This document shows, one piece after another, positions 1,729-18,784 of a stretch of 23,474 nt of DNA; the stretch's first letter is position 1; the number at the start of each line of letters is the position of its first letter. Location: IMG/VR virus record IMGVR_UViG_3300035138_000092, positions 1 through 23,474 of that record; one strand, 5' to 3'. The position numbers and the translations under genes were made by a program. Below the pieces are notes generated by a model, which ran no database searches, was not told the DNA's origin, and worked only from the letters and a program-made list of their open reading frames with translations. The stretch comes from a virus.

Positions 1729-3322
1729 TATATATAAAAATCAAAGAAAATCCTCTGATATTATTTCTTTCAGAAAATGGATTGATAAATATTATCGCAT
1801 ACCATTAAGTAATAGAGCACCACAGGGAACACTGGTATTTTCTGATAAACCCTACCTTAAAGACTTATATAAATGCACTGATAAAGAGATAGTGGTAATG
1901 AAAAGTGCTCAAGTGGGTATAAGTGAATGGGCAATCGCACAATCAATTTATCATGCTGATCAGTATGGTGCTATTGTGTTATATACATTTCCTACTGCAG
2001 CACAAATAGGTAATTTTGTTTCAGGACGTGTTAATCCTGTTATAGAGAACTCAATGTATATAAACCAGTTAATAGGTAAATCCAGGTACTCCAAAGATGA
2101 TATAGGAATGAAATCTATTGGTGGTGCTTTTTTATATTTTAGAGGTTCAGTTGATAGAAACCAAATAATCAGTATAAACGCTGATATGGTTGTGTTGGAT
2201 GAATTGGATCAGATGATTCAAAACAGTATCGATACTATAGAGAAACGTTTATTATCAAGTGCATACCAGTGGAAAAGGAAACTGAGTGCACCGACATATG
2301 TAGATTTTGGAATAGATGCTGAATATGCAAAAAGTGATATGCGCCAATGGTTTATTAAATGTCCCAAATGTCGTAAAGAACAAACACTAAGATTTCCACA
2401 ATCATTTCGAATAGATCCACCACAGGATGGATATTGGTGCGATAAACACAAGTGTGACGGTAAACTTAATCCAACAAAAGGTATGTGGATTAAAACTGTT
2501 CCTGAATCCGATATAACCGGTTATCATGTAGTAGGTATGATGAATCCCAGAACTAACGCATTAAAAATTATTGAGAAATACAATGATCCACGCACTAATA
2601 TAATGGAATTTTACTGGCAGGATATTGGGATTCCATACAATCCCAAAGGTTCCAAAATGACACGTGATATTTTAGATGCATGTCGGGCAACCGATAAAGA
2701 AGTTCTTGCTGAAATTGGAAACCATTGCAGAATGGGTGTTGACGTTGGAAAAGTCCTACACGTGAGAATAAGTGAACTAGTGGATGAACGGAAGGTTGCC
2801 CGATATATAGGAACTGTTAAAGAATTTGAGGATCTGGATAAATTGATGCGACTATATGATGTGGATGTATGTATTATCGATGCATTACCAGAAACAAGAA
2901 AAGCTAAAGAGTTTCAGGAACGATACAAAGGAAGAGTATGGTTAGCTTATTATACTCCAATAAAAGGTGGACGAATATGTGATTTTGATCCTAAAGAACC
3001 AATAGTAAAGGTAAATCGCACACTTGCACTTGATCATGTACATGCTGAATTAGAAGGTAGAGAACAGGTGCTACCGAAAAATATAGACGATATTGAAGAT
3101 TTTTATGATCAGATGTGTGCTTTGACTAAGATTGAGAAAACTGATCCTAAAACCGGTAATAAATCATATCTTTATGTAGGTGGCAGTGTTGATGAACAAG
3201 GTAAACCTACAACTGTTGAGAGACCTGATCATTATATGCATTCCAGTGTGTATGAGTTCATAGCCTGGCAAGCGAAAGTATATAGAACATTTACTGGTAG
3301 AAGGGCAAGGATATTCGGATGA
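1664..3322 (+). CDS. terL: terminase large subunit, GpA family, 552 aa
   Basis: This is the motor ATPase and nuclease that packages DNA into the prohead. The deviant Walker A KSAQVGIS begins at K80 and, as in lambda gpA (KSARVGYS), has its lysine at the start of the loop. Walker B is VVLDELD with D179/E180. A Cys pair motif follows (CPKCRKE, then C and H), a feature of GpA-type enzymes. The C-terminal RNase H-like nuclease shows RMGVDVGK with D360 and VCIIDALPE with D406. The length fits. The start at 1664 overlaps the preceding gene by 65 bases; no other in-frame ATG precedes the ATPase core. A small membrane gene begins in the stop codon region (ATGA). Confidence 0.93.
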   Translation: MLNLETNSSKESLNYVYQRTVNIYKNQRKSSDIISFRKWIDKYYRIPLSNRAPQGTLVFSDKPYLKDLYKCTDKEIVVMKSAQVGISEWAIAQSIYHADQYGAIVLYTFPTAAQIGNFVSGRVNPVIENSMYINQLIGKSRYSKDDIGMKSIGGAFLYFRGSVDRNQIISINADMVVLDELDQMIQNSIDTIEKRLLSSAYQWKRKLSAPTYVDFGIDAEYAKSDMRQWFIKCPKCRKEQTLRFPQSFRIDPPQDGYWCDKHKCDGKLNPTKGMWIKTVPESDITGYHVVGMMNPRTNALKIIEKYNDPRTNIMEFYWQDIGIPYNPKGSKMTRDILDACRATDKEVLAEIGNHCRMGVDVGKVLHVRISELVDERKVARYIGTVKEFEDLDKLMRLYDVDVCIIDALPETRKAKEFQERYKGRVWLAYYTPIKGGRICDFDPKEPIVKVNRTLALDHVHAELEGREQVLPKNIDDIEDFYDQMCALTKIEKTDPKTGNKSYLYVGGSVDEQGKPTTVERPDHYMHSSVYEFIAWQAKVYRTFTGRRARIFG

Positions 3323-3492
3323 AAGTTATAAAATTTATAAGTTATTCAATTATGAGTTATTTAATATTTACACTAATAGAAATAATTGCAATAGAATATA
3401 ATTATAACCAATTATTATTAGATTTGATAAAAAGAAGTTATGGATTTAGTATCGGAATATTACTTTATCATTATTTAATCAGGAAGGAATAA
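3319..3492 (+). CDS. small membrane protein, 57 aa
   Basis: The frame starts at the ATG of the ATGA that ends the terminase gene and stops at TAA 3490-3492, which shares a base with the next ATG, so three genes are coupled by overlaps. Residues 4-26 are hydrophobic (IKFISYSIMSYLIFTLIEII) and a second hydrophobic stretch covers about 41-54 (YGFSIGILLYHYLI), with charged residues between and after. Two membrane passes are likely. A role near terminase could be an accessory or holin-like function, but nothing in the sequence shows it. Confidence 0.55.
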   Translation: MKVIKFISYSIMSYLIFTLIEIIAIEYNYNQLLLDLIKRSYGFSIGILLYHYLIRKE

Positions 3493-3698
3493 TGGAACAA
3501 ATATTATTAAGCGATATTTTATATACAGAAAATATTGATGAACTAAGGAGAATAGCCAAGGATTTATTTTTTGATGTACTTACTTTTAGAGGATATTATG
3601 CAGAATTTAAAGCAATATGTAAAAATCATGGCTATGAAGGTAGTTCACATCATGAATTATTAAATTATCTAGAGGATAAATTATGGAAAAAAAACTGA
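3492..3698 (+). CDS. hypothetical protein, 68 aa
   Basis: I do not recognise this protein. It is acidic to neutral and predicted helical (SDILYTENIDELRRIAKD), with a second half carrying KAICKNHGYEGSSHHELLNY. GGAAGGAAT lies just before the ATG, which overlaps the preceding stop by one base. The next small gene begins inside its 3' end. It is probably a cytoplasmic accessory protein. Confidence 0.65.
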   Translation: MEQILLSDILYTENIDELRRIAKDLFFDVLTFRGYYAEFKAICKNHGYEGSSHHELLNYLEDKLWKKN

Positions 3699-3853
3699 TG
3701 GAAATACATAATCTAGCTTTAAAAAAAGCTAATGAATACAAACGAATAGATACACAAATAAAGTATTATAAAAAAGAAAGAAACCGGTTATTAGAAGAAA
3801 ATAAATATTGGGAAAAACTATCCGATAAATTAGTGGAAATAATGAAACAATAA
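3683..3853 (+). CDS. coiled-coil small protein, 56 aa
   Basis: The ATG lies 16 bases before the end of the preceding gene; the stop is at 3851-3853, one base before the next ATG. The product is Lys/Glu-rich with heptad-like hydrophobics (LMEIHNLALKKANEYKRI, then NRLLEENKYWEKLSDKLVEI), so an alpha-helical coiled coil is likely along most of its length. Gene order without gaps supports it as real. No family is recognised. Confidence 0.6.
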   Translation: MEKKLMEIHNLALKKANEYKRIDTQIKYYKKERNRLLEENKYWEKLSDKLVEIMKQ

Positions 3854-3854
3854 A

Positions 3855-4124
3855 ATGAAGTTTATAAATGACATAGAAGAATTTGGATTATGGTTTAAAC
3901 GTTTATTAAGATGGGATAAATGTGAATTCTGTGAAAACATAGATTATGAAATTAAATTATATGATTTAAAGATATTAGATTATGTACAAATAAGCTCAGA
4001 AGTAGAGATAACGTGTAATCGATGTGGAAAAATAAAAAAATGGAATACCGATAAACTATATTCATATTATCAATCGTTAAAACTGAATCGGAATGTGGAG
4101 GCAGAAAATGGCAGATGCAGTTAA
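3855..4124 (+). CDS. zinc-ribbon small protein, 89 aa
   Basis: Two CxxC knuckles are visible: C23-E-F-C26 and C54-N-R-C57 (WDKCEFCENIDYEIK, then EITCNRCGKIKKW), a spacing typical of a zinc ribbon. The N-terminus is amphipathic and aromatic. Zinc ribbons commonly bind nucleic acid or protein partners; no specific role can be given. The 3' end overlaps the portal start by 17 bases, so translation is likely coupled to portal. Confidence 0.68.
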   Translation: MKFINDIEEFGLWFKRLLRWDKCEFCENIDYEIKLYDLKILDYVQISSEVEITCNRCGKIKKWNTDKLYSYYQSLKLNRNVEAENGRCS

Positions 4125-5748
4125 AGATCCAATATTAAGAAAAGCAATTATTCTTGGTGATATAAAAACAGCAAGACAAACTGGTAAAAGTAAACAAGTT
4201 AGCAGACTTATTAAAAAGGATAAATTTGATTACAAAGGTACTGATGCTATTAAACCGCCATATAATTTATTTTGGTTAGCTGATTATATGGTGAGATGTA
4301 CTGAACATGAAGCAGCAGTGAATTTGAAAGCCAGTACAATTATATCTGAATTACAAATAATTCCAGTTGAAGGACAAGAAACAGAAAGTAAACGTGAAGG
4401 TGATGAATCATTAGAAAAAGAAGAAAAACGTATATGGGAACGAATTGATAATCTTAATCCACATACACCAACAAATGAAATATTTAGAAGAACAGCGATA
4501 GATTATGAAGCTATAGGTTGTGGATATATGGAAGTACTTCGATTTACCACTCAGGAACTTGCACAGTTAAACCATGCTTCTGCAACAGATATGCGAATAA
4601 GACAGGATGGTATAGGGTTTATCCAAGAGGTAGGTGATTCTTATCGTTATTTTAAGCTGTTTGGTGATAATGATATTCCGATGAGTTATGCATCTGGTAA
4701 GTTTCCACTCACAGCGGAACAGATACAGAAACATTTCAGGGAAAGTCATAATATTTTAATTGATAGTGAAAGAGCAGAAGAGTTGGTGGCTAAGGAAGAA
4801 GAGTATTTTGAAGAAGATGAAGCAACTGAAATACTTGATTTTCAGAAATATCATACACAAAGTGAAAGGTATGGATTACCGGATTGTTTATCATGTACAG
4901 TTGATATGGAAATTTTGGAGAAAGCAAAAGAATATAATTATTACTTTTTTCAGAATCATGCTATGGCAAGATGGTTGATATTATTATCCGGTCCGGACGA
5001 TACATTAACTCATGAGGATGAAGAAGTTATACAAAATTATATAACTGCATCAATAAAAGGTAATAGTAATGTCGGCAAATCCTTATGGTTAAGATTACCA
5101 AGTGGTGTATCAATAGAAATACAGCGATTAGATGCAGATATTAAGGAAGGTAGTTGGGAGAAGTTAATATATAACAGTGCATTATCAGTAGCAAGAGCAG
5201 AAGGTGTACCACTGGATTTACTTCAAATAGTTACTCCACAAGGATTAGGAGGTACACGAACTAAACAAGCACTTGTGCAATTCAAGGAACATGTTATTGA
5301 TCCTGGACAGAAATACTTTTCAAACCGCATTAATAAGAATCTTGTATGGAGCGATAAAGGATTGAATATAAATAACTGGCAGATCCAATTTAAATCATTC
5401 GATATAGACAAAACCGGTGAAGATGTAGAATATTTCACCAAGATGGAGAAAGCCGGTAGATTTAATACTGACGAAATGAGAGCATTTGCAAAACAATTAG
5501 GATTCACGTTCTTCGATGAAGTGGAAGTGGAAGGTGGAAAAGCTATATTGGTTGATACTAATAAGCAACCATTAGCGTATTTAGCTGGAACACCAGAAGA
5601 ACAGGTTGAAGCGAATAAAACACCGGAAGAGAAAACAGTTAAATCGCTTCATGATCTAAAAAAGAGTATATTGGAAATGGTAGGAAAACAAACTAAACCT
5701 GAATCAGAAGAAGAATTGGTAGACTTGGAAGTTGAATTAAATGATTAA
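4108..5748 (+). CDS. phage portal protein, 546 aa
   Basis: Position right after terminase and the sequence point to the portal, the dodecameric ring through which DNA enters the head and to which the tail joins. The N-terminal region has YNLFWLADYMVRCTEHEAAV, typical of portals that carry a tyrosine/leucine-rich start. The core includes FFQNHAMARWLILLSG, GVPLDLL and GTRTKQALVQFKEHVIDP, like PBSX-type portals, and the tail is acidic. The start at 4108 has GGAGG about 6 bases upstream; the in-frame ATG at 4093 does not. Length (500-550 aa) fits the family. Family assignment is by overall pattern rather than a catalytic motif. Confidence 0.85.
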   Translation: MADAVKDPILRKAIILGDIKTARQTGKSKQVSRLIKKDKFDYKGTDAIKPPYNLFWLADYMVRCTEHEAAVNLKASTIISELQIIPVEGQETESKREGDESLEKEEKRIWERIDNLNPHTPTNEIFRRTAIDYEAIGCGYMEVLRFTTQELAQLNHASATDMRIRQDGIGFIQEVGDSYRYFKLFGDNDIPMSYASGKFPLTAEQIQKHFRESHNILIDSERAEELVAKEEEYFEEDEATEILDFQKYHTQSERYGLPDCLSCTVDMEILEKAKEYNYYFFQNHAMARWLILLSGPDDTLTHEDEEVIQNYITASIKGNSNVGKSLWLRLPSGVSIEIQRLDADIKEGSWEKLIYNSALSVARAEGVPLDLLQIVTPQGLGGTRTKQALVQFKEHVIDPGQKYFSNRINKNLVWSDKGLNINNWQIQFKSFDIDKTGEDVEYFTKMEKAGRFNTDEMRAFAKQLGFTFFDEVEVEGGKAILVDTNKQPLAYLAGTPEEQVEANKTPEEKTVKSLHDLKKSILEMVGKQTKPESEEELVDLEVELND

Positions 5749-6628: not shown

Positions 6629-7144
6629 ATGCTTAAGAGTAAAACAGAAAAAACTATAAATGAAAAATTTGATAGCATTATCAATAGATTACACGATTTT
6701 CATACGTATAATATTATGGTTTCTATTGTACAGGGTTTCATAAAGGGGATTGAAGATTCTTTTCTCAAAGGGCTTTATGGTAAACTTTCTGGTAATTATA
6801 GTATTGGTAATGCTCTTTTTTATGAAATATCTCAAGAATATGGAAAAAAGTATGGTTCGAAAATAGTTCAAATTTTATTGGATAAAAAGAAAAAGGAAAG
6901 AATTACAAAAGAAGCAGAATTTAGATTTGATAAATTAGATACAAAACCTGGTGATTTACTATTAATTAATTCTGATGAATCAATTTTTCAAGATGAATAT
7001 TATGAGAATTTATTTAGAGAATTAGCGCAAAAACACAATATTAAATTCATACATATAAAAAAGGATATAAGAATACAAGATATACCAGAAAAAGAAATGG
7101 AGAAAATGGGATGGGTTAGAAAGGAAAAAATAACATCACAATGA
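6629..7144 (+). CDS. hypothetical protein, 171 aa
   Basis: AAGGAG at 6615-6620 sits 8 bases before the ATG. The protein looks like two parts: a helical N-terminal region (EKFDSIINRLHDFHTYNIM, then GSKIVQILLDKKKKERI), and from about residue 105 an alpha/beta stretch (KPGDLLLINSDESI, then LAQKHNIKFIHIKKDI). I do not recognise a family. The last codons overlap the next gene by 4 bases (ATGA). Confidence 0.68.
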   Translation: MLKSKTEKTINEKFDSIINRLHDFHTYNIMVSIVQGFIKGIEDSFLKGLYGKLSGNYSIGNALFYEISQEYGKKYGSKIVQILLDKKKKERITKEAEFRFDKLDTKPGDLLLINSDESIFQDEYYENLFRELAQKHNIKFIHIKKDIRIQDIPEKEMEKMGWVRKEKITSQ

Positions 7145-7617
7145 TACAAGACGTACAAGTAAAACTATTAAAAACCCACAGATCCGCTGATAAAAGTGAG
7201 TTTACTGAAATAATACGTCATTCTGATACATTTTTTACAGAAGGATTTGCACAGCTTAATCATGTTACTATGTATGGGAGAGGAACAATAAAAGCATGGC
7301 ATATCTGTCAAACACAGGAAGAATGGTGGTATGTTCCAGTTGGTAATCTTGCTGTTAAACTTATTGATATAAGGAAAAATTCGCCTACATATAAAAACGA
7401 AATGATTATAACGTTGGGTGATAGTTACCCACCGAAAGTGCTTAAAGTACCACATGGGATAGTACATGGATGTAAATCAATATATTTTGTTACTCATTTG
7501 ATTTATATAGCGTCAAAAGAATATGATGAGCATGAAGAACTTAAATTTAAATTAAAAGATGATTTTAATTTTTATTGGGATGAATGGGAGAAAATAAAAA
7601 AAGGAGTGAATATATAA
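7141..7617 (+). CDS. RmlC-like cupin, dTDP-4-dehydrorhamnose 3,5-epimerase family, 158 aa
   Basis: The sequence follows the RmlC-type jelly roll: HSDTFFTEGFAQLNHVTM, GTIKAWHICQTQEEWWYVP, GNLAVKLIDIRKNSPT, and PPKVLKVPHGIVHGCKSI. The histidine in KAWH takes the place of the catalytic base found in the KGxxRGxH motif of RmlC, and PHGIVHG matches the second conserved His region. The classical arginine before that His is absent, so true epimerase activity is uncertain; sugar binding or isomerisation is a reasonable guess. Length is slightly under the usual 180. It overlaps the previous gene by an ATGA. No other sugar genes are visible, so it may act on host-made nucleotide sugars. Confidence 0.72.
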   Translation: MIQDVQVKLLKTHRSADKSEFTEIIRHSDTFFTEGFAQLNHVTMYGRGTIKAWHICQTQEEWWYVPVGNLAVKLIDIRKNSPTYKNEMIITLGDSYPPKVLKVPHGIVHGCKSIYFVTHLIYIASKEYDEHEELKFKLKDDFNFYWDEWEKIKKGVNI

Positions 7618-14551: not shown

Positions 14552-15197
14552 ATGTGATACACATAAAGAACTTAAATCATATTTAGATAATATTCCACTT
14601 TTAACCAAGCAGGAAAAATTAGATATAATTAATCTTATAAAATTCAAACATGAGAAAATTAACAATTTAATGGATAAATGTGGAGAATTATCTTTAGATA
14701 TTTTACTTTGGGCTATGAAGAAAGTGGCTAATAAAAAATTGGAATTTGACACTTATTTAAAAACTAAAGAAAAAGAACCAGAATATATCTGCAAAAAATG
14801 TGGTTTATGCTGCAGGTGTACAACTGTTAATATAGATTGTTATAATATAAAAACTAAAGAATATTATCCAAAATATTTTAAAAAGAAGGATTTGAATCCC
14901 AAAATCCCTGAAGAGAAATTCATAATAAAAAACTGGAAAAGGATATCAAGAAAAACAGCGCGAAAATTAAATCCATATCATTTTAATACAACCAATAAAT
15001 ATAGCAATGGGAAAATGCCATATTATTATACTTGCAAACTATTAAAAGATAACAAATGTTCTGTGTATGAAGAAAGACCCGAAATATGTAGAAATCACAA
15101 ACCCGGGGATAGTTCATATAGCCCTGATTGTGGAATAAAGGTGATACCTGATGCAGAAGTTGGAACTGAACCCAGATCAAAGCAAGCTGATAACTGA
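14544..15197 (+). CDS. YkgJ-family CxxCxxCC metal-cluster protein, 217 aa
   Basis: The centre has ICKKCGLCCRCTT (around residues 82-94), the CxxCxxCC signature of YkgJ-type proteins, which bind zinc or iron-sulfur clusters. The second signature half follows: YTCKLLKDNKCSVYEERPEICRNH. Both are intact. The N-terminal 75 residues are helical and not part of the family core; between the halves lies a basic insert (KNWKRISRKTARKLNP). The C-terminal tail DAEVGTEPRSKQADN is read in another frame from the first 47 bases of the MuF gene, which it overlaps. The gene is enclosed by two copies of the MuF start. The biochemical role of YkgJ proteins is mostly unknown; some modify or assist protein maturation. 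Confidence 0.78.
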   Translation: MIKCDTHKELKSYLDNIPLLTKQEKLDIINLIKFKHEKINNLMDKCGELSLDILLWAMKKVANKKLEFDTYLKTKEKEPEYICKKCGLCCRCTTVNIDCYNIKTKEYYPKYFKKKDLNPKIPEEKFIIKNWKRISRKTARKLNPYHFNTTNKYSNGKMPYYYTCKLLKDNKCSVYEERPEICRNHKPGDSSYSPDCGIKVIPDAEVGTEPRSKQADN

Positions 15198-16911
15198 AAT
15201 TGATCTTTTCGCAATAGATTTGGTTGATCAGATAGATCTTACCAAATCAATCAAACCGCCTATTGATGAGTATGGACAGTTTCTATCAACACTTACCAAA
15301 TACTGGAACGAACAAGTAAGTAAAGCTGTCCAAGATGTAATACTCACAGCAAACCAATTTTTACGTACAGCACAGCTTAACGAACGTGTAATAGATTTAA
15401 TGACTGATTCATTCACTGAATACCTGGGTCCGGGATTAGCTGGCAGATCACAGGTAAGAGATGCTGTAAAGAATTTAATAACACAATCCTGGACTAAAGG
15501 AAAAGATCTTGCTTTTGCTCCCAGTGGATTAAAATGGAGTTGGCAATTAATTGATCAACGTGCTGTGAATCATCTTACAAGGGATACAATGTATTGGATA
15601 GGGAACCAGTATGGTAAAAATATTGGTCCCAAAATAGCTGAGATAACACGTAAAGTTGGTATTGAATCCGGACTTGGTAGACGTGAAGTGGGTAAAGCTT
15701 TAAGAGATGCTTTTGAAGGTGAGTTAAAGATACCGGTTGGTTTCAGAGGATCACCACTGAACTATTATACTCTTGTTGGTGCATCGGCAATGAATAGATC
15801 TAGGACATGGGGAAATATTACTGGATATCAAGAACGTGGAATTGCTTATTATAGATGGGAAGCTGCACTAGATGAAAGAATGTGTTTCCCCAAGGGAACA
15901 AAGGTTCTTACAGATAGAAAAGAGAAATCAATTGAAACTATTCAACCCGGATGGAAAGTATTCACTGACCAGTTGCGTTTTAAACGAGTTAAAGCTATTT
16001 CAAAAACCAAATACAAAGGTCAAATGAATCGAATAATAGCTAAAAACAAAAAGATTGAATGTACTTCAGATCACCTAATTATGATCTATCGCAATGATCA
16101 AATAATGTGGGTTGAAGCAAAAAATATAAAAAGGGGTGACTATCTTATAAAGCGAAAAACAGGTGGAAAATGTAAAGAATGCGGAAAAGAATATCATTTG
16201 CAACCACTCCAAAATCGTAAATTTAGTATTGAACGAATGAATTATTGTTGTCAAGAATGTTATAACAAATACAGACAAAGAAAAAACTGGACTGAAATTA
16301 CATGTAAGAATTGTGGTAAAAACAAAAAAGTTAGAAAAATATATGTTGATCGCAATCAATATAAATGTTGTAGTGAAAAATGTAGAAGAAATTATGAATT
16401 AAAAGGTTTAAAACCAGAAGATTTATATCAAATATGTAAAAGATGTGGCAAGAAATATAGAGCGAAACCCAAAGAAATTCTTAATAAGACAAGATCCTAC
16501 TGTTCAGAAGAGTGTTATCGCCCTCCACAATATTTAATATGCAAAAATTGTAAAATACGATTTAGATATGTTCCCAGTGAAATAGTACACAGACGATTTT
16601 GTTCAAATGGTTGCTACAAATCGTATACGGGAGAAACAAGGTTCCAGAAAAAGGTAAGAAAATTCATAGAATCAAAGGGTGTATTTATAGAAAATGAAGT
16701 TCAGTATAATCGATTTGTAGTTGATTTCTTCTTACCCATACACCAAATGGCGATAGAAGCTGATGGAACATATTGGCATTCCAAGCCAGGGATTAAGGAG
16801 CGAGATGCGAGAAAAGATAAACTATTAAAAGATAACGGAATTCAAGTTATAAGAATATCGGAAGAATGTCTTGAAAGGGATTTAAAAAAGCTGGGGAAAA
16901 TATTGAAATGA
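15151..16911 (+). CDS. MuF-like minor head protein N-part with intein N-half and nuclease, 586 aa
   Basis: Residues 1-244 are the N-extein, a helical head-morphogenesis protein of the Mu gpF/SPP1 gp7 kind ending YYRWEAALDERM. Residue C245 starts an intein: block A CFPKGTKVLTD, block B IECTSDHLI, then WVEAKNIKRGDYLI. Residues 341-488 hold four zinc-finger units, each CxxC then CxxC or CxxxC (C341/344/367/370, C385/388/407/411, C429/432/451/455, C464/467/484/488). Residues 494-586 form a Vsr/PD-(D/E)XK-like nuclease (VVDFFLP with D525, AIEADGTYWH with E536, D538, H543, then RDARKDKLLKDNGIQVIRI), a plausible homing endonuclease. The frame stops at TGA 16909, inside the next gene's ATG. GGTGAT precedes the start. 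Confidence 0.88.
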   Translation: MQKLELNPDQSKLITEIDLFAIDLVDQIDLTKSIKPPIDEYGQFLSTLTKYWNEQVSKAVQDVILTANQFLRTAQLNERVIDLMTDSFTEYLGPGLAGRSQVRDAVKNLITQSWTKGKDLAFAPSGLKWSWQLIDQRAVNHLTRDTMYWIGNQYGKNIGPKIAEITRKVGIESGLGRREVGKALRDAFEGELKIPVGFRGSPLNYYTLVGASAMNRSRTWGNITGYQERGIAYYRWEAALDERMCFPKGTKVLTDRKEKSIETIQPGWKVFTDQLRFKRVKAISKTKYKGQMNRIIAKNKKIECTSDHLIMIYRNDQIMWVEAKNIKRGDYLIKRKTGGKCKECGKEYHLQPLQNRKFSIERMNYCCQECYNKYRQRKNWTEITCKNCGKNKKVRKIYVDRNQYKCCSEKCRRNYELKGLKPEDLYQICKRCGKKYRAKPKEILNKTRSYCSEECYRPPQYLICKNCKIRFRYVPSEIVHRRFCSNGCYKSYTGETRFQKKVRKFIESKGVFIENEVQYNRFVVDFFLPIHQMAIEADGTYWHSKPGIKERDARKDKLLKDNGIQVIRISEECLERDLKKLGKILK

Positions 16912-17045
16912 AAGATATAGATCTGAATAGATGGGAATTGGTTGAGGTTGAATCAAACAAGTCATATGAGGATGAGCTAGAAGTCTATGATATAGAAGTT
17001 GAAGATGATCATACGTTTATTGCTAATGGATTTATAGTACATAAT
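15883..17045 (+). mobile_element. intein with zinc-finger/Vsr-like homing nuclease, split over two frames
   Basis: The element begins at Cys1 (codon 15883) and ends at Asn (codon 17043-17045), before the Cys+1 codon at 17046. Splicing blocks are intact: A (CFPKGTKVLT), B (CTSDHLI), F (VYDIEVEDDHTFIANGF) and G (IVHN followed by C). The insertion point is the CPIC motif of MuF proteins, a conserved site, as is usual for inteins. The stop at 16909 and start at 16908 divide it into about 342 and 46 residues. The element is probably mobile as a homing unit. Confidence 0.85.
16881..16890 (+). promoter_or_regulatory. candidate -1 frameshift site (T TTA AAA AAG)
   Basis: In the frame of the first MuF gene the codons are TTA AAA AAG, containing both T TTA AAA and A AAA AAG, the heptamer used by E. 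coli dnaX. The -1 frame is open from 16875 to the end of the second MuF gene, so a slip here would join both. AAAGGGA sits only a few bases upstream, closer than the usual stimulatory spacing, and no strong downstream hairpin is visible. A-runs are common in this genome, so chance is possible. Confidence 0.4.
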
Positions 17046-17963
17046 TGCCCTATCTGCACTGAACTTGAAGGTAAGGAATGGAAAACTGAATGGGGAACCA
17101 AAAGAATTGAACAAGCAATGGAATTAACCAATCCTGAAGATATGAAAAAGCATATGCCCTGGATAGGGTTTGATGGTGGTAGGGCTTCTAAAGCTGGTTG
17201 GAAACCATCTGAACCAGTATATCCACAAGGAGTTAAGCTTTATCCACAATCAGGTATTCAAAAAGGCAGGGCAGCAGGTTTATTTATAAAAGATCCCGAT
17301 AGTGGGAAGAAAACTTATTTTGCAGGTAAAGATGGTAAATTGAAAGGTACAAAAGAGCTTGCTGATTTGGGTATAGTATCACCGCCAATTCATGCATTAT
17401 GCAGATGCAGCATCATTGAGTCAGTTGACCGAATAATAAAAACAATTACAGAAAAAATTACAATAATTTCCAATATAACAAATATTACCGATAGAGAATT
17501 AAATTACATCCTAGCAACCATAAAACAAATAAAACTACCCGAAGAAGGTATACTTACAATCAAGTTAGGTACTGAACCCGCAAAAGTCGATTTCAAAACT
17601 GGTAAAGATAAAAAAGGTTTATATATAAAAAGTCGTACAAGAAAATTAACAGGCTGGAAAACATACAGACAAGATGATCCTATTTTCAAAGAATATCTCA
17701 GGACAATGATTGAGCAGGGAATCTTACCGAAACCTGTTATTCCAACAAACGCTAAAACAATCGTTAAACTAACCAGTAAATCGTTTAATGATAAGATACA
17801 AGGGGTACCAGTCCAGTATGAGGGTAAAACGTTAAAAATGAGCCGGATATCGCATGATAAGTACGGTTTATTTATAGAGTTAGAAGACGTGGTTATATAC
17901 AAAAGATTTTTACCGGATAAGTTTAATGAAATTATCAGACAAATTAAGAAAAAGATATATTAA
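16908..17963 (+). CDS. intein C-half and MuF-like minor head protein C-part, 351 aa
   Basis: Residues 1-46 are the C-terminal intein segment with block F (VYDIEVEDDHTFIANGF) and block G ending H45-N46; C47 is the +1 extein residue. From there the C-extein reads CPICTELEGKEW, and later PPIHALCRCS, the two cysteine motifs typical of MuF proteins (CPxC and PPxHxxCRC). Spliced with residues 1-244 of the previous gene it gives a 549-residue head protein. The remaining C-terminal 190 residues are a variable domain (LPEEGILTIKLG, KKGLYIKSRTR). The ATG overlaps the previous stop (ATGA), and GGGG lies 11 bases upstream, so coupled translation is plausible. Confidence 0.87.
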   Translation: MKDIDLNRWELVEVESNKSYEDELEVYDIEVEDDHTFIANGFIVHNCPICTELEGKEWKTEWGTKRIEQAMELTNPEDMKKHMPWIGFDGGRASKAGWKPSEPVYPQGVKLYPQSGIQKGRAAGLFIKDPDSGKKTYFAGKDGKLKGTKELADLGIVSPPIHALCRCSIIESVDRIIKTITEKITIISNITNITDRELNYILATIKQIKLPEEGILTIKLGTEPAKVDFKTGKDKKGLYIKSRTRKLTGWKTYRQDDPIFKEYLRTMIEQGILPKPVIPTNAKTIVKLTSKSFNDKIQGVPVQYEGKTLKMSRISHDKYGLFIELEDVVIYKRFLPDKFNEIIRQIKKKIY

Positions 17964-18369: not shown

Positions 18370-18661
18370 ATTACCATATATTCCTTTATACTCCCCATAT
18401 CGTTATTTTTCATTGACATTAATATTATTATGGTTAAATTATAATATTAAGATGTCAAATACTAACACGTTTTATACAGGATATACTTATTTTGAGTTAC
18501 GTTGTGAAAAATGTAACCGATATATGGGGACAGCGTTTTTATACAATGGGATCATAACACTGCGTTGCCCCGTGTCTAAATGTAAACATACTACAACCAT
18601 TGAATATAGATTAGGTGAAAAAATATATGGAGATAAAAAATCTGATATTGTAGCTTTATAA
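18347..18661 (+). CDS. Com-like zinc-finger protein, 104 aa (start uncertain)
   Basis: The second half (from about residue 48) reads FELRCEKCNRYMGTAF, then GIITLRCPVSKCKHTTTIEY. This resembles the Mu Com family, where CxxC and CPxxxC bind zinc; Mu Com is a translational activator acting on an RNA hairpin. The first 35 residues are hydrophobic and aromatic (YSPYRYFSLTLILLWLNYN) and may not be translated; an ATG at 18452 would give a 69-residue protein with just the zinc part. Neither start has a ribosome site. Confidence 0.55.
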   Translation: MIMKLSNKLPYIPLYSPYRYFSLTLILLWLNYNIKMSNTNTFYTGYTYFELRCEKCNRYMGTAFLYNGIITLRCPVSKCKHTTTIEYRLGEKIYGDKKSDIVAL

Positions 18662-18696
18662 AAAGCTGTAATTGCTTAGAATTATGAGCGTATAAG

Positions 18697-18761
18697 AAGC
18701 TCCGATTCCATTTTGGGACGACGCCAAGCGTCAGGTACCAAAGTGTCATCGGAGCTTTTTT
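18697..18761 (+). terminator. three-tier structured RNA ending in a U-tract, terminator-like
   Basis: AAGCTCCGAT (18697-18706) pairs with ATCGGAGCTT (18748-18757), 10 perfect pairs, followed by a run of T to 18761. Within it CATTTTGG (18709-18716) pairs with CCAAAGTG (18738-18745), and inside that GACGC (18720-18724) pairs with GCGTC (18728-18732) around CAA. The stem plus U-run is a good intrinsic terminator; the layered interior is longer than one needs. It lies between the small zinc genes and the capsid operon. A reading frame from 18713 runs through it but has a better start at 18803. Confidence 0.72.
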
Positions 18762-18763
18762 AT

Positions 18764-18784
18764 TTTGTGGAAGTTGACGTTGAA
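18764..18784 (+). repeat. 21-nt leader repeat before protease gene
   Basis: TTTGTGGAAGTTGA plus CGTTGAA matches 20675-20695 at 19 of 21 positions. Each copy lies in the leader of a capsid-operon gene: this one 18 bases before the protease start. Confidence 0.7.

What the first reader, a model, noticed from the sequence alone, without database searches (positions are those of the whole stretch)
16872..16911. dnaX-type slippery heptamer just before the stop that divides the intein
Seen: in-frame T TTA AAA AAG at 16881-16890; the -1 frame is open from 16875 onward and runs into the intein C-half and C-extein. A slip would make a single cis-splicing precursor. This competes with the split-intein model and with a simple indel in the A6 run (one more A would fuse the frames). 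Against programmed slipping: the purine AAAGGGA is very close, and there is no strong downstream stem.
Basis: partly seen in the sequence, partly recalled or inferred. Interest (0 to 1): 0.72.

Follow-up and report, generated by a model that had tools for sequence, protein, structure and literature searches.

The report
Two-gene split intein, not frameshift
A phage capsid-assembly gene carries a self-splicing protein insert that is encoded as two overlapping genes whose products most likely join after translation, and the suspected ribosome-slip site between them looks like a coincidence.

Summary
The sequence claim is correct. T TTA AAA AAG lies in frame at 16881-16890, shortly before TGA 16909, and the -1 frame is open from 16875 into the intein C-half and C-extein. 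Programmed slipping is not supported: no Shine-Dalgarno-like element at a stimulatory distance, no downstream hairpin; in-frame A_AAA_AAG occurs 7 times in 22 window genes, and the same decamer recurs in the protease gene.

Best reading: a naturally split intein in a gpF-like head protein. ORF 1 carries N-extein, IntN, zinc ribbons and an I-Bth0305I/Vsr-fold homing endonuclease. ORF 2 carries a 46-aa IntC and the C-extein and starts at an ATGA overlap. Two unrelated viral loci (L192, L294) have the same two-ORF layout with overlapping start/stop and no heptamer there. IntC starts overlap an upstream ORF in 25 of 46 split loci examined. An indel is not excluded: no reads, no close relatives.

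A side result may matter more. At the same gpF site in L030, and in L158 and L202, the intein frame stays stop-free across 221-432 codons of an endonuclease encoded in the overlapping +1 frame (0 of 20,000 codon shuffles match): an overprinted intein.

The parts
15151..15882 (+). N-extein of gpF-like (phage head morphogenesis) protein, start of ORF 1
   Evidence: PHROG 13868 matches residues 131-243 at profile positions 138-246; homologous to the L030 N-extein
15883..16158 (+). Intein N-half (IntN): Cys1 at 15883, TSDH block-B motif
   Evidence: PF14890 1.3e-9 and Hint_2; TIGR01445 from profile position 1, below its cut-off; IntN profile match; model residues 1-93 match Hint/intein structures
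16159..16629 (+). Cysteine-rich zinc-ribbon-like repeats between IntN and the nuclease
   Evidence: Conserved cysteine pairs in alignments A1 and A2; boundaries approximate
16630..16908 (+). Homing-endonuclease catalytic domain, I-Bth0305I/Vsr-like PD-(D/E)XK fold, ending in frame 0 as LKKLGKILK
   Evidence: MTES_1575 2.7e-9 (just under cut-off), DUF559 2.2e-7 (over cut-off); 3r3p Z 13.2 over model residues 252-342, 1cw0 Z 12.9
16881..16890 (+). T TTA AAA AAG slippery decamer (T_TTA_AAA and A_AAA_AAG in frame); judged incidental
16893..16897 (+). GGGGA, weak Shine-Dalgarno-like stretch 10 nt before ATG 16908
   Evidence: Read directly from the sequence; not tested
16908..16911 (+). ATGA: start codon of ORF 2 overlapping the TGA stop of ORF 1
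16908..17045 (+). Intein C-half (IntC), 46 aa, ending VHN
   Evidence: TIGR01443 1.7e-11 over the whole profile, above cut-off; PF14890 9.4e-6; length within 34-58 aa of split loci
17046..17963 (+). C-extein of the gpF-like protein, Cys+1 at 17046
   Evidence: PHROG 13868 resumes at profile position 250; homologous to the L030 C-extein

Best explanation
This is a naturally split intein in a phage gpF-like head gene, encoded by two overlapping ORFs. Shown by sequence: ORF 1 (586 aa) is N-extein + IntN + zinc ribbons + an I-Bth0305I/Vsr-fold nuclease; ORF 2 (351 aa) is a 46-aa IntC + C-extein and starts at ATGA on the ORF 1 stop. Inferred: ribosomes ending ORF 1 re-initiate at the overlapping ATG; the two proteins associate through IntN and IntC and splice in trans, restoring a head protein of about 550 aa and releasing an IntN-nuclease of 342 aa that can promote homing into intein-less DERTC-type sites. 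The slippery decamer is incidental and could at most give a trace of fused cis precursor.
For: Splicing motifs are present in both halves (sequence). The intein interrupts one protein family between profile positions 246 and 250, and intein-less relatives read DERTC-xxC there (13 of 15 loci). The nuclease fold runs to the last frame-0 residue (Z 13.2 and 12.9 over 252-342 and 249-342). Two unrelated loci, L192 and L294, have the same two-ORF layout with IntC start overlapping the stop and no heptamer in the -1-open stretch. In three-ORF loci, where a slip cannot join IntN to IntC, the IntC start still often overlaps the nuclease stop; 25 of 46 split loci overlap an upstream ORF. An ATG within 10 nt of the stop: 16 of 48 split loci against 9.3% of simulated indels. 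L030, at the same site, keeps the same -1 offset between nuclease and IntC. ATGA pairs are strongly coupled in tested cases (abstract of PMC6728339).
Against: No experiment, reads or transcript. No relative close enough to test conservation of the junction; the nearest, L030, is 37% over the nuclease and has a different layout. The tail profile does not separate frame 0 from -1 (113.8 against 113.2 bits). Simulated indels would give an ATG at the stop in 9.3% and ATGA in 5.0% of cases, so the overlap alone is not decisive. Only 3 of 48 split loci have this two-ORF layout, and all three have the -1 frame. The heptamer is a real, efficient type of slip motif.
Confidence: 0.77

Rival explanations
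1. The stop is an artefact or a recent mutation: a one-base indel in the homopolymer has broken a contiguous intein-nuclease gene (assembly error, or a recently damaged or decaying element).
For: The homopolymer run at the junction is where such an indel would act; contiguous inteins with related nucleases in gpF-like genes exist (L089, L104); the tail profile does not discriminate; indels give an ATG at the new stop in 9.3% of simulations; no reads could be examined.
Against: The ATGA overlap, an IntC of ordinary length, two other loci with the same layout, and the shared -1 nuclease-to-IntC offset in L030. The flanking head genes are full length.
Confidence: 0.14
2. Programmed -1 frameshifting at T TTA AAA AAG makes one cis-splicing precursor, with the frame-0 product as IntN-nuclease.
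For: A_AAA_AAG is among the most efficient heptamers in E. coli when stimulators are present (PMC4066793 passages); it is correctly in frame and the -1 frame is open.
Against: No SD-like stimulator and no GC-closed hairpin; weak folding, z -0.98, -0.78, +0.76, +1.03; without stimulators motifs were 2.1- to 10-fold over a 0.055% background in E. coli, about 0.5% at most by my arithmetic; the decamer also occurs where no shift is needed; heptamer in 1 of 6 loci tested. Pseudoknots were not modelled and the host is unknown.
Confidence: 0.07
3. The locus is dead: no functional gpF is made from it, or another gene supplies it.
For: The record is a 23-kb fragment and its fate is unknown.
Against: Intact intein motifs in both halves; terminase, portal, protease-like and capsid ORFs are full length.
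Confidence: 0.02

Closest known systems
Fractured genes: split inteins with a homing endonuclease gene between the halves (Dassa et al. 2009, NAR 37:2560; not held, known here from reference lists and from recall)
   Same: Split intein in a phage gene; nuclease of the I-Bth0305I/Vsr fold; IntC on its own ORF.
   Different: Here the nuclease is fused in frame to IntN, giving two ORFs instead of three.
Contiguous inteins with a nested homing endonuclease
   Same: Order IntN - nuclease - IntC, as in L089 and L104, which also lie in phage structural genes
   Different: IntC is in another frame with its own start codon
ShiLan domain, out-of-frame HNH endonuclease in a phage methylase (PMC11855218; abstract and section 4.3 read)
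   Same: Frame conflict between a homing endonuclease and its host ORF; closest to L030, L158 and L202
   Different: HNH, no splicing domains, host frame stays open; the window itself is not overprinted
dnaX-type -1 programmed frameshifting
   Same: The heptamer A_AAA_AAG in frame
   Different: No SD-like element in the tested spacing and no downstream stem-loop

Membership tests
Naturally split intein | Intein N- and C-splicing motifs present | tested here: met
   PF14890 on both ORFs (ORF 1 over cut-off, ORF 2 below it); TIGR01443 over cut-off, TIGR01445 below cut-off; Cys1, TSDH, VHN/C in the sequence
Naturally split intein | The two halves are on separate ORFs, each with a plausible start | tested here: met
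   ORF 2 starts at ATG 16908
Naturally split intein | Inserted at a site that is uninterrupted in relatives | tested here: met
   13 of 15 loci without intein; PHROG 13868 continuity
Naturally split intein | Trans-splicing activity | not testable with these tools
   Needs expression of the two ORFs
I-Bth0305I (EDxHD) homing endonuclease family | Vsr-like fold matching I-Bth0305I | tested here: met
   3r3p Z 13.2, rmsd 2.0, 87 aligned; phmmer 0.0017
I-Bth0305I (EDxHD) homing endonuclease family | Conserved acidic and histidine residues | tested here: met
   E255, D281, E292, H299 nearly invariant in 27 rows; the motif name is recalled
I-Bth0305I (EDxHD) homing endonuclease family | Site-specific cleavage of the empty site | not testable with these tools
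   Needs a cleavage assay
Fractured gene (three-ORF split intein) | Nuclease on an ORF separate from IntN | tested here: not met
   One ORF 15151-16911 holds both
-1 programmed frameshift gene | Slippery heptamer in frame before the 0-frame stop | tested here: met
-1 programmed frameshift gene | SD-like or hairpin stimulator | tested here: not met
   pseudoknots not modelled
-1 programmed frameshift gene | Motif conserved in relatives | tested here: inconclusive
   Absent in the -1-open stretch of L192, L294, L012, L106 and L207, but none of these is a close relative

The most novel reading that the evidence does not exclude
A homing endonuclease gene and an intein that do not share one reading frame settle the conflict in alternative ways. 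Either the whole nuclease is overprinted on a stop-free intein frame (L030 at the very same gpF site, L158, L202), or translation ends and restarts near the nuclease stop so that the intein becomes split (window, L192, L294, and the three-ORF loci). The homologous pairs window/L030 and L189/L202 each show one split and one overprinted state with the same -1 offset between nuclease and IntC. If so, frame conflict with the endonuclease is a route by which natural split inteins arise, and out-of-frame endonucleases inside live inteins are a further class of mobile intein.
Probability: 0.35. Interest if true: 0.78.

Novelty: new variant of a known kind. Interest (0 to 1): 0.5.

Why it matters
If right, it adds a two-gene arrangement to the contiguous and three-gene forms of endonuclease-bearing inteins: the splicing half carries its own homing nuclease and the second half is started on its stop codon. 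That gives an intermediate for the cis-to-split transition and a natural test of whether termination-reinitiation balances the halves of a capsid-assembly protein. The overprinted relatives give a clean, testable case of an intein whose linker is a second gene read in another frame. It also removes a tempting but probably false programmed-frameshift annotation.

Tried and rejected
Nuclease-tail profile (84 tails): frame 0 scores 113.8 bits and -1 scores 113.2 (best domain); too close to use. Tail length (15 aa after the last strand; median 22, n = 90) fits a natural end but does not prove it.

Close relatives: ORF 1 in viral contigs, no pattern match; capsid in viral contigs, 3 pattern matches but none a relative; ORF 2 in viral contigs gave mostly unrelated inteins matching only around IntC; phages collection, none near (capsid about 30% to Streptomyces phages); genome contigs with the nuclease alignment, 1 distant locus. 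Isolate-phage searches with L294, L030 and L192 proteins gave matches to the nuclease part only, or nothing.

Transcriptional slippage: only six As; not tested further. Alternative code (TGA = Trp): TAG follows at 16918. Rfam and tRNA: none. A dead-element reading was kept as a low rival.

Literature: searches (listings seen). In the listings I found no report of an endonuclease overprinted out of frame on an intein with splicing domains; the nearest was ShiLan. The library lacks most subscription papers, and Dassa 2009 could not be read.

Full report
THE OBSERVATION. The window is a complete IMG/VR virus record of 23,474 bases with GpA-type terminase, portal, protease-like and capsid ORFs. 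TTTAAAAAAG is at 16881-16890. In the frame of ORF 15151-16911 it reads T TTA AAA AAG, so both T_TTA_AAA and A_AAA_AAG are in frame. The stop is TGA 16909-16911. The -1 frame is open from 16875 and continues through ATG 16908 to 17963. The motif is not rare here: over 5,389 codon positions of 22 genes, X_XXY_YYZ occurs 36 times and A_AAA_AAG 7 times, and the same decamer is in frame at 20410 inside the protease-like ORF.

WHAT THE GENE IS. ORF 1 is the N-extein of a gpF-like head protein, an intein N-half (PF14890 1.3e-9), cysteine-rich repeats and a nuclease domain (MTES_1575 2.7e-9, just below its cut-off; DUF559 2.2e-7, above its cut-off). ORF 2 starts with an intein C-half (TIGR01443 1.7e-11, whole profile, over cut-off), followed by the C-extein. 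The label 'gpF-like' rests on weak minor-head and head-morphogenesis PHROG matches of ORF 2 (0.0023 and 0.0026) and on the DERTC/CxxC arrangement (recalled as typical of Mu gpF relatives). PHROG 13868 (no function given) matches ORF 1 up to profile position 246 and ORF 2 from position 250, so the intein interrupts one family. Thirteen of the 15 loci have no intein and read DERTC-xxC at that point; the other two are records of the L030 contigs, which do have it. Several of the 13 are identical or nearly so, and one of the two search patterns contained the DERTC motif.

THE NUCLEASE. AlphaFold2 on the protein of 15883-16908 with 27 rows gave mean pLDDT 86 and pTM 0.48, so the domains are confident and their arrangement is not. 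Residues 252-342, to the last frame-0 residue, match I-Bth0305I (3r3p, Z 13.2, rmsd 2.0, 87 aligned), and residues 249-342 match Vsr (1cw0, Z 12.9, rmsd 1.5, 94 aligned). Residues 1-93 match Hint/intein structures such as Npu DnaE (4lx3, Z 7.8, rmsd 3.3, 89 aligned). The frame-0 ending LKKLGKIL is modelled as the last helix (334-341, block pLDDT 84-86). A profile of 84 relatives' tails does not separate frame 0 from -1 (113.8 against 113.2 bits).

LAYOUTS IN OTHER VIRUSES. I fetched loci with IntC, nuclease, extein and pattern queries, so the counts below describe that sample, not nature. With profiles for IntN, IntC and nuclease over 357 sequences on both strands (the window counted through its copy L001), distinct IntC sites fell as follows: IntN and IntC in the same ORF 119; same ORF plus an out-of-frame nuclease 3; split with the IntN ORF ending soon after IntN 45; split with the IntN ORF running more than 240 nt further 3; no IntN within 5 kb 19 (189 in all). 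The three long-ORF cases are the window, L192 and L294.

L192 is a DNA polymerase B gene (Pfam) with IntN and an HNH-like stretch (by eye; no Pfam hit) in one ORF, and IntC starting at ATGA 4986-4989. L294 (minus strand) has DUF559 1.5e-10 and PF14890 9.1e-16 in one ORF, with the IntC ATG 7 nt before its TAA; its extein looks like DNA polymerase B by eye. All three have IntC in the -1 frame. Only the window has a heptamer in the -1-open stretch; L012, L106 and L207, which also have ATGA junctions, have none.

WHY SPLIT RATHER THAN SLIPPED. In many loci IntN ends on its own stop codon, the nuclease is a separate ORF and the IntC start still overlaps the nuclease stop: L012, L016, L029, L106, L179, L189, L191 (first of two), L197, L217; L191 (second), L193 and L205 do not overlap. 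There a slip at the nuclease end cannot join IntN to IntC. Of 46 split loci with an ATG start, 25 overlap an upstream ORF, and IntC lengths run 34-58 aa (median 41; window 46). Simulated indels in 101 contiguous inteins put an ATG at the new stop in 9.3% (ATGA 5.0%) of 13,736 cases, against 16 of 48 (ATGA 5 of 48) in split loci: supportive, not decisive. By the criteria quoted in PMC4066793 (passages) there is no SD-like element and no GC-closed hairpin; plain folding is unremarkable (z -0.98, -0.78, +0.76, +1.03). That paper reports 2.1- to 10-fold over a 0.055% background for shift-prone motifs without stimulators, about 0.5% at most by my arithmetic, for E. coli ribosomes. ATGA coupling is well documented (13 of 14 tested overlapping pairs strictly coupled; abstract of PMC6728339), and ATGA also joins ORFs at 7141/7144 in this window.

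THE SAME SITE SOLVED ANOTHER WAY. L030 (two records, identical over 6,492 nt) has the intein at the same gpF site, with a homologous nuclease (37% over 247 aa) and IntC/C-extein (29% over 165 aa). There the intein ORF is open from end to end, and the nuclease is read in the +1 frame inside it. L158 (Mu F-like, PF04233 4.3e-9) and L202 (helicase) do the same. Shuffling synonymous codons within each nuclease gives 26.5, 17.6 and 11.8 stops on average in the intein frame; the observed number is 0 in all three, and 0 of 20,000 shuffles reach it. The other frame is unremarkable (26, 20 and 19 observed against 22.1, 22.4 and 17.6). L189, a homologue of L202 (nuclease 42%) with a split intein, shows no such avoidance (22 against 22.8), nor does the window (30 against 29.3). 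In window and L030, and in L189 and L202, the nuclease-to-IntC offset is -1. That argues that the offset is old rather than a sequencing slip. But in the window the nuclease is in frame with IntN and in L030 it is not, so the histories differ at the 5' side. The nearest precedent I found is the ShiLan domain (HNH, no splicing domains; PMC11855218, abstract and section 4.3).

MECHANISM. Shown: anatomy, intact motifs, overlap, fold, recurrence of the layout. Inferred: reinitiation at ATG 16908, association of the halves, trans-splicing, homing activity. Confidence 0.77 for the split-intein reading, 0.14 for an indel, 0.07 for programmed frameshifting as the main route.

LIMITS. No reads, no close relative, host unknown, pseudoknots not modelled, and Dassa 2009 not readable here; its content is taken from its title in reference lists and from recall.

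Noticed in passing
L030:2311-5046 and 3221-4666; L158:1191-5291 and 3751-5085; L202:3504-6119 and 4333-5025: Inteins whose reading frame stays stop-free across a homing endonuclease encoded in the overlapping +1 frame; 0 of 20,000 codon shuffles reach the observed absence of stops. How the nuclease is started is unclear; the start codons seen are TTG, GTG or ATG inside the IntN region.
   Followed up: partly
L189:3762-5999 and L202:3504-6119: Homologous intein-nuclease elements (nuclease 42% identity); L189 is split and shows no stop avoidance, L202 is overprinted and does.
   Followed up: partly
L148:3358-6560: Another gpF-like gene with an intein at a DDRT/C site: zinc-ribbon remnant fused to IntN, then a separate small PD-(D/E)XK-like ORF (by eye) overlapping the IntC start, and what looks like a second intein in the C-extein.
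   Followed up: no
L104:2567-6397: One phage ORF with two in-frame inteins, each with a related nuclease.
   Followed up: no
window 8183-9538: Ro60/TROVE plus vWA-type protein in a phage (PF05731 2.2e-17; Rsr model 3.3e-8, below cut-off); no Rfam match anywhere in the window.
   Followed up: no
window 18694-18761: Very stable hairpin followed by a T-run (-41.5 kcal/mol, z -5.5 for 18660-18770), probably a terminator; the mechanical TTG start 18713 of the next ORF lies inside it, so the real protease start is probably later.
   Followed up: no
window 7141-7144: A second ATGA start/stop overlap, between ORFs 6629-7144 and 7141-7617.
   Followed up: no
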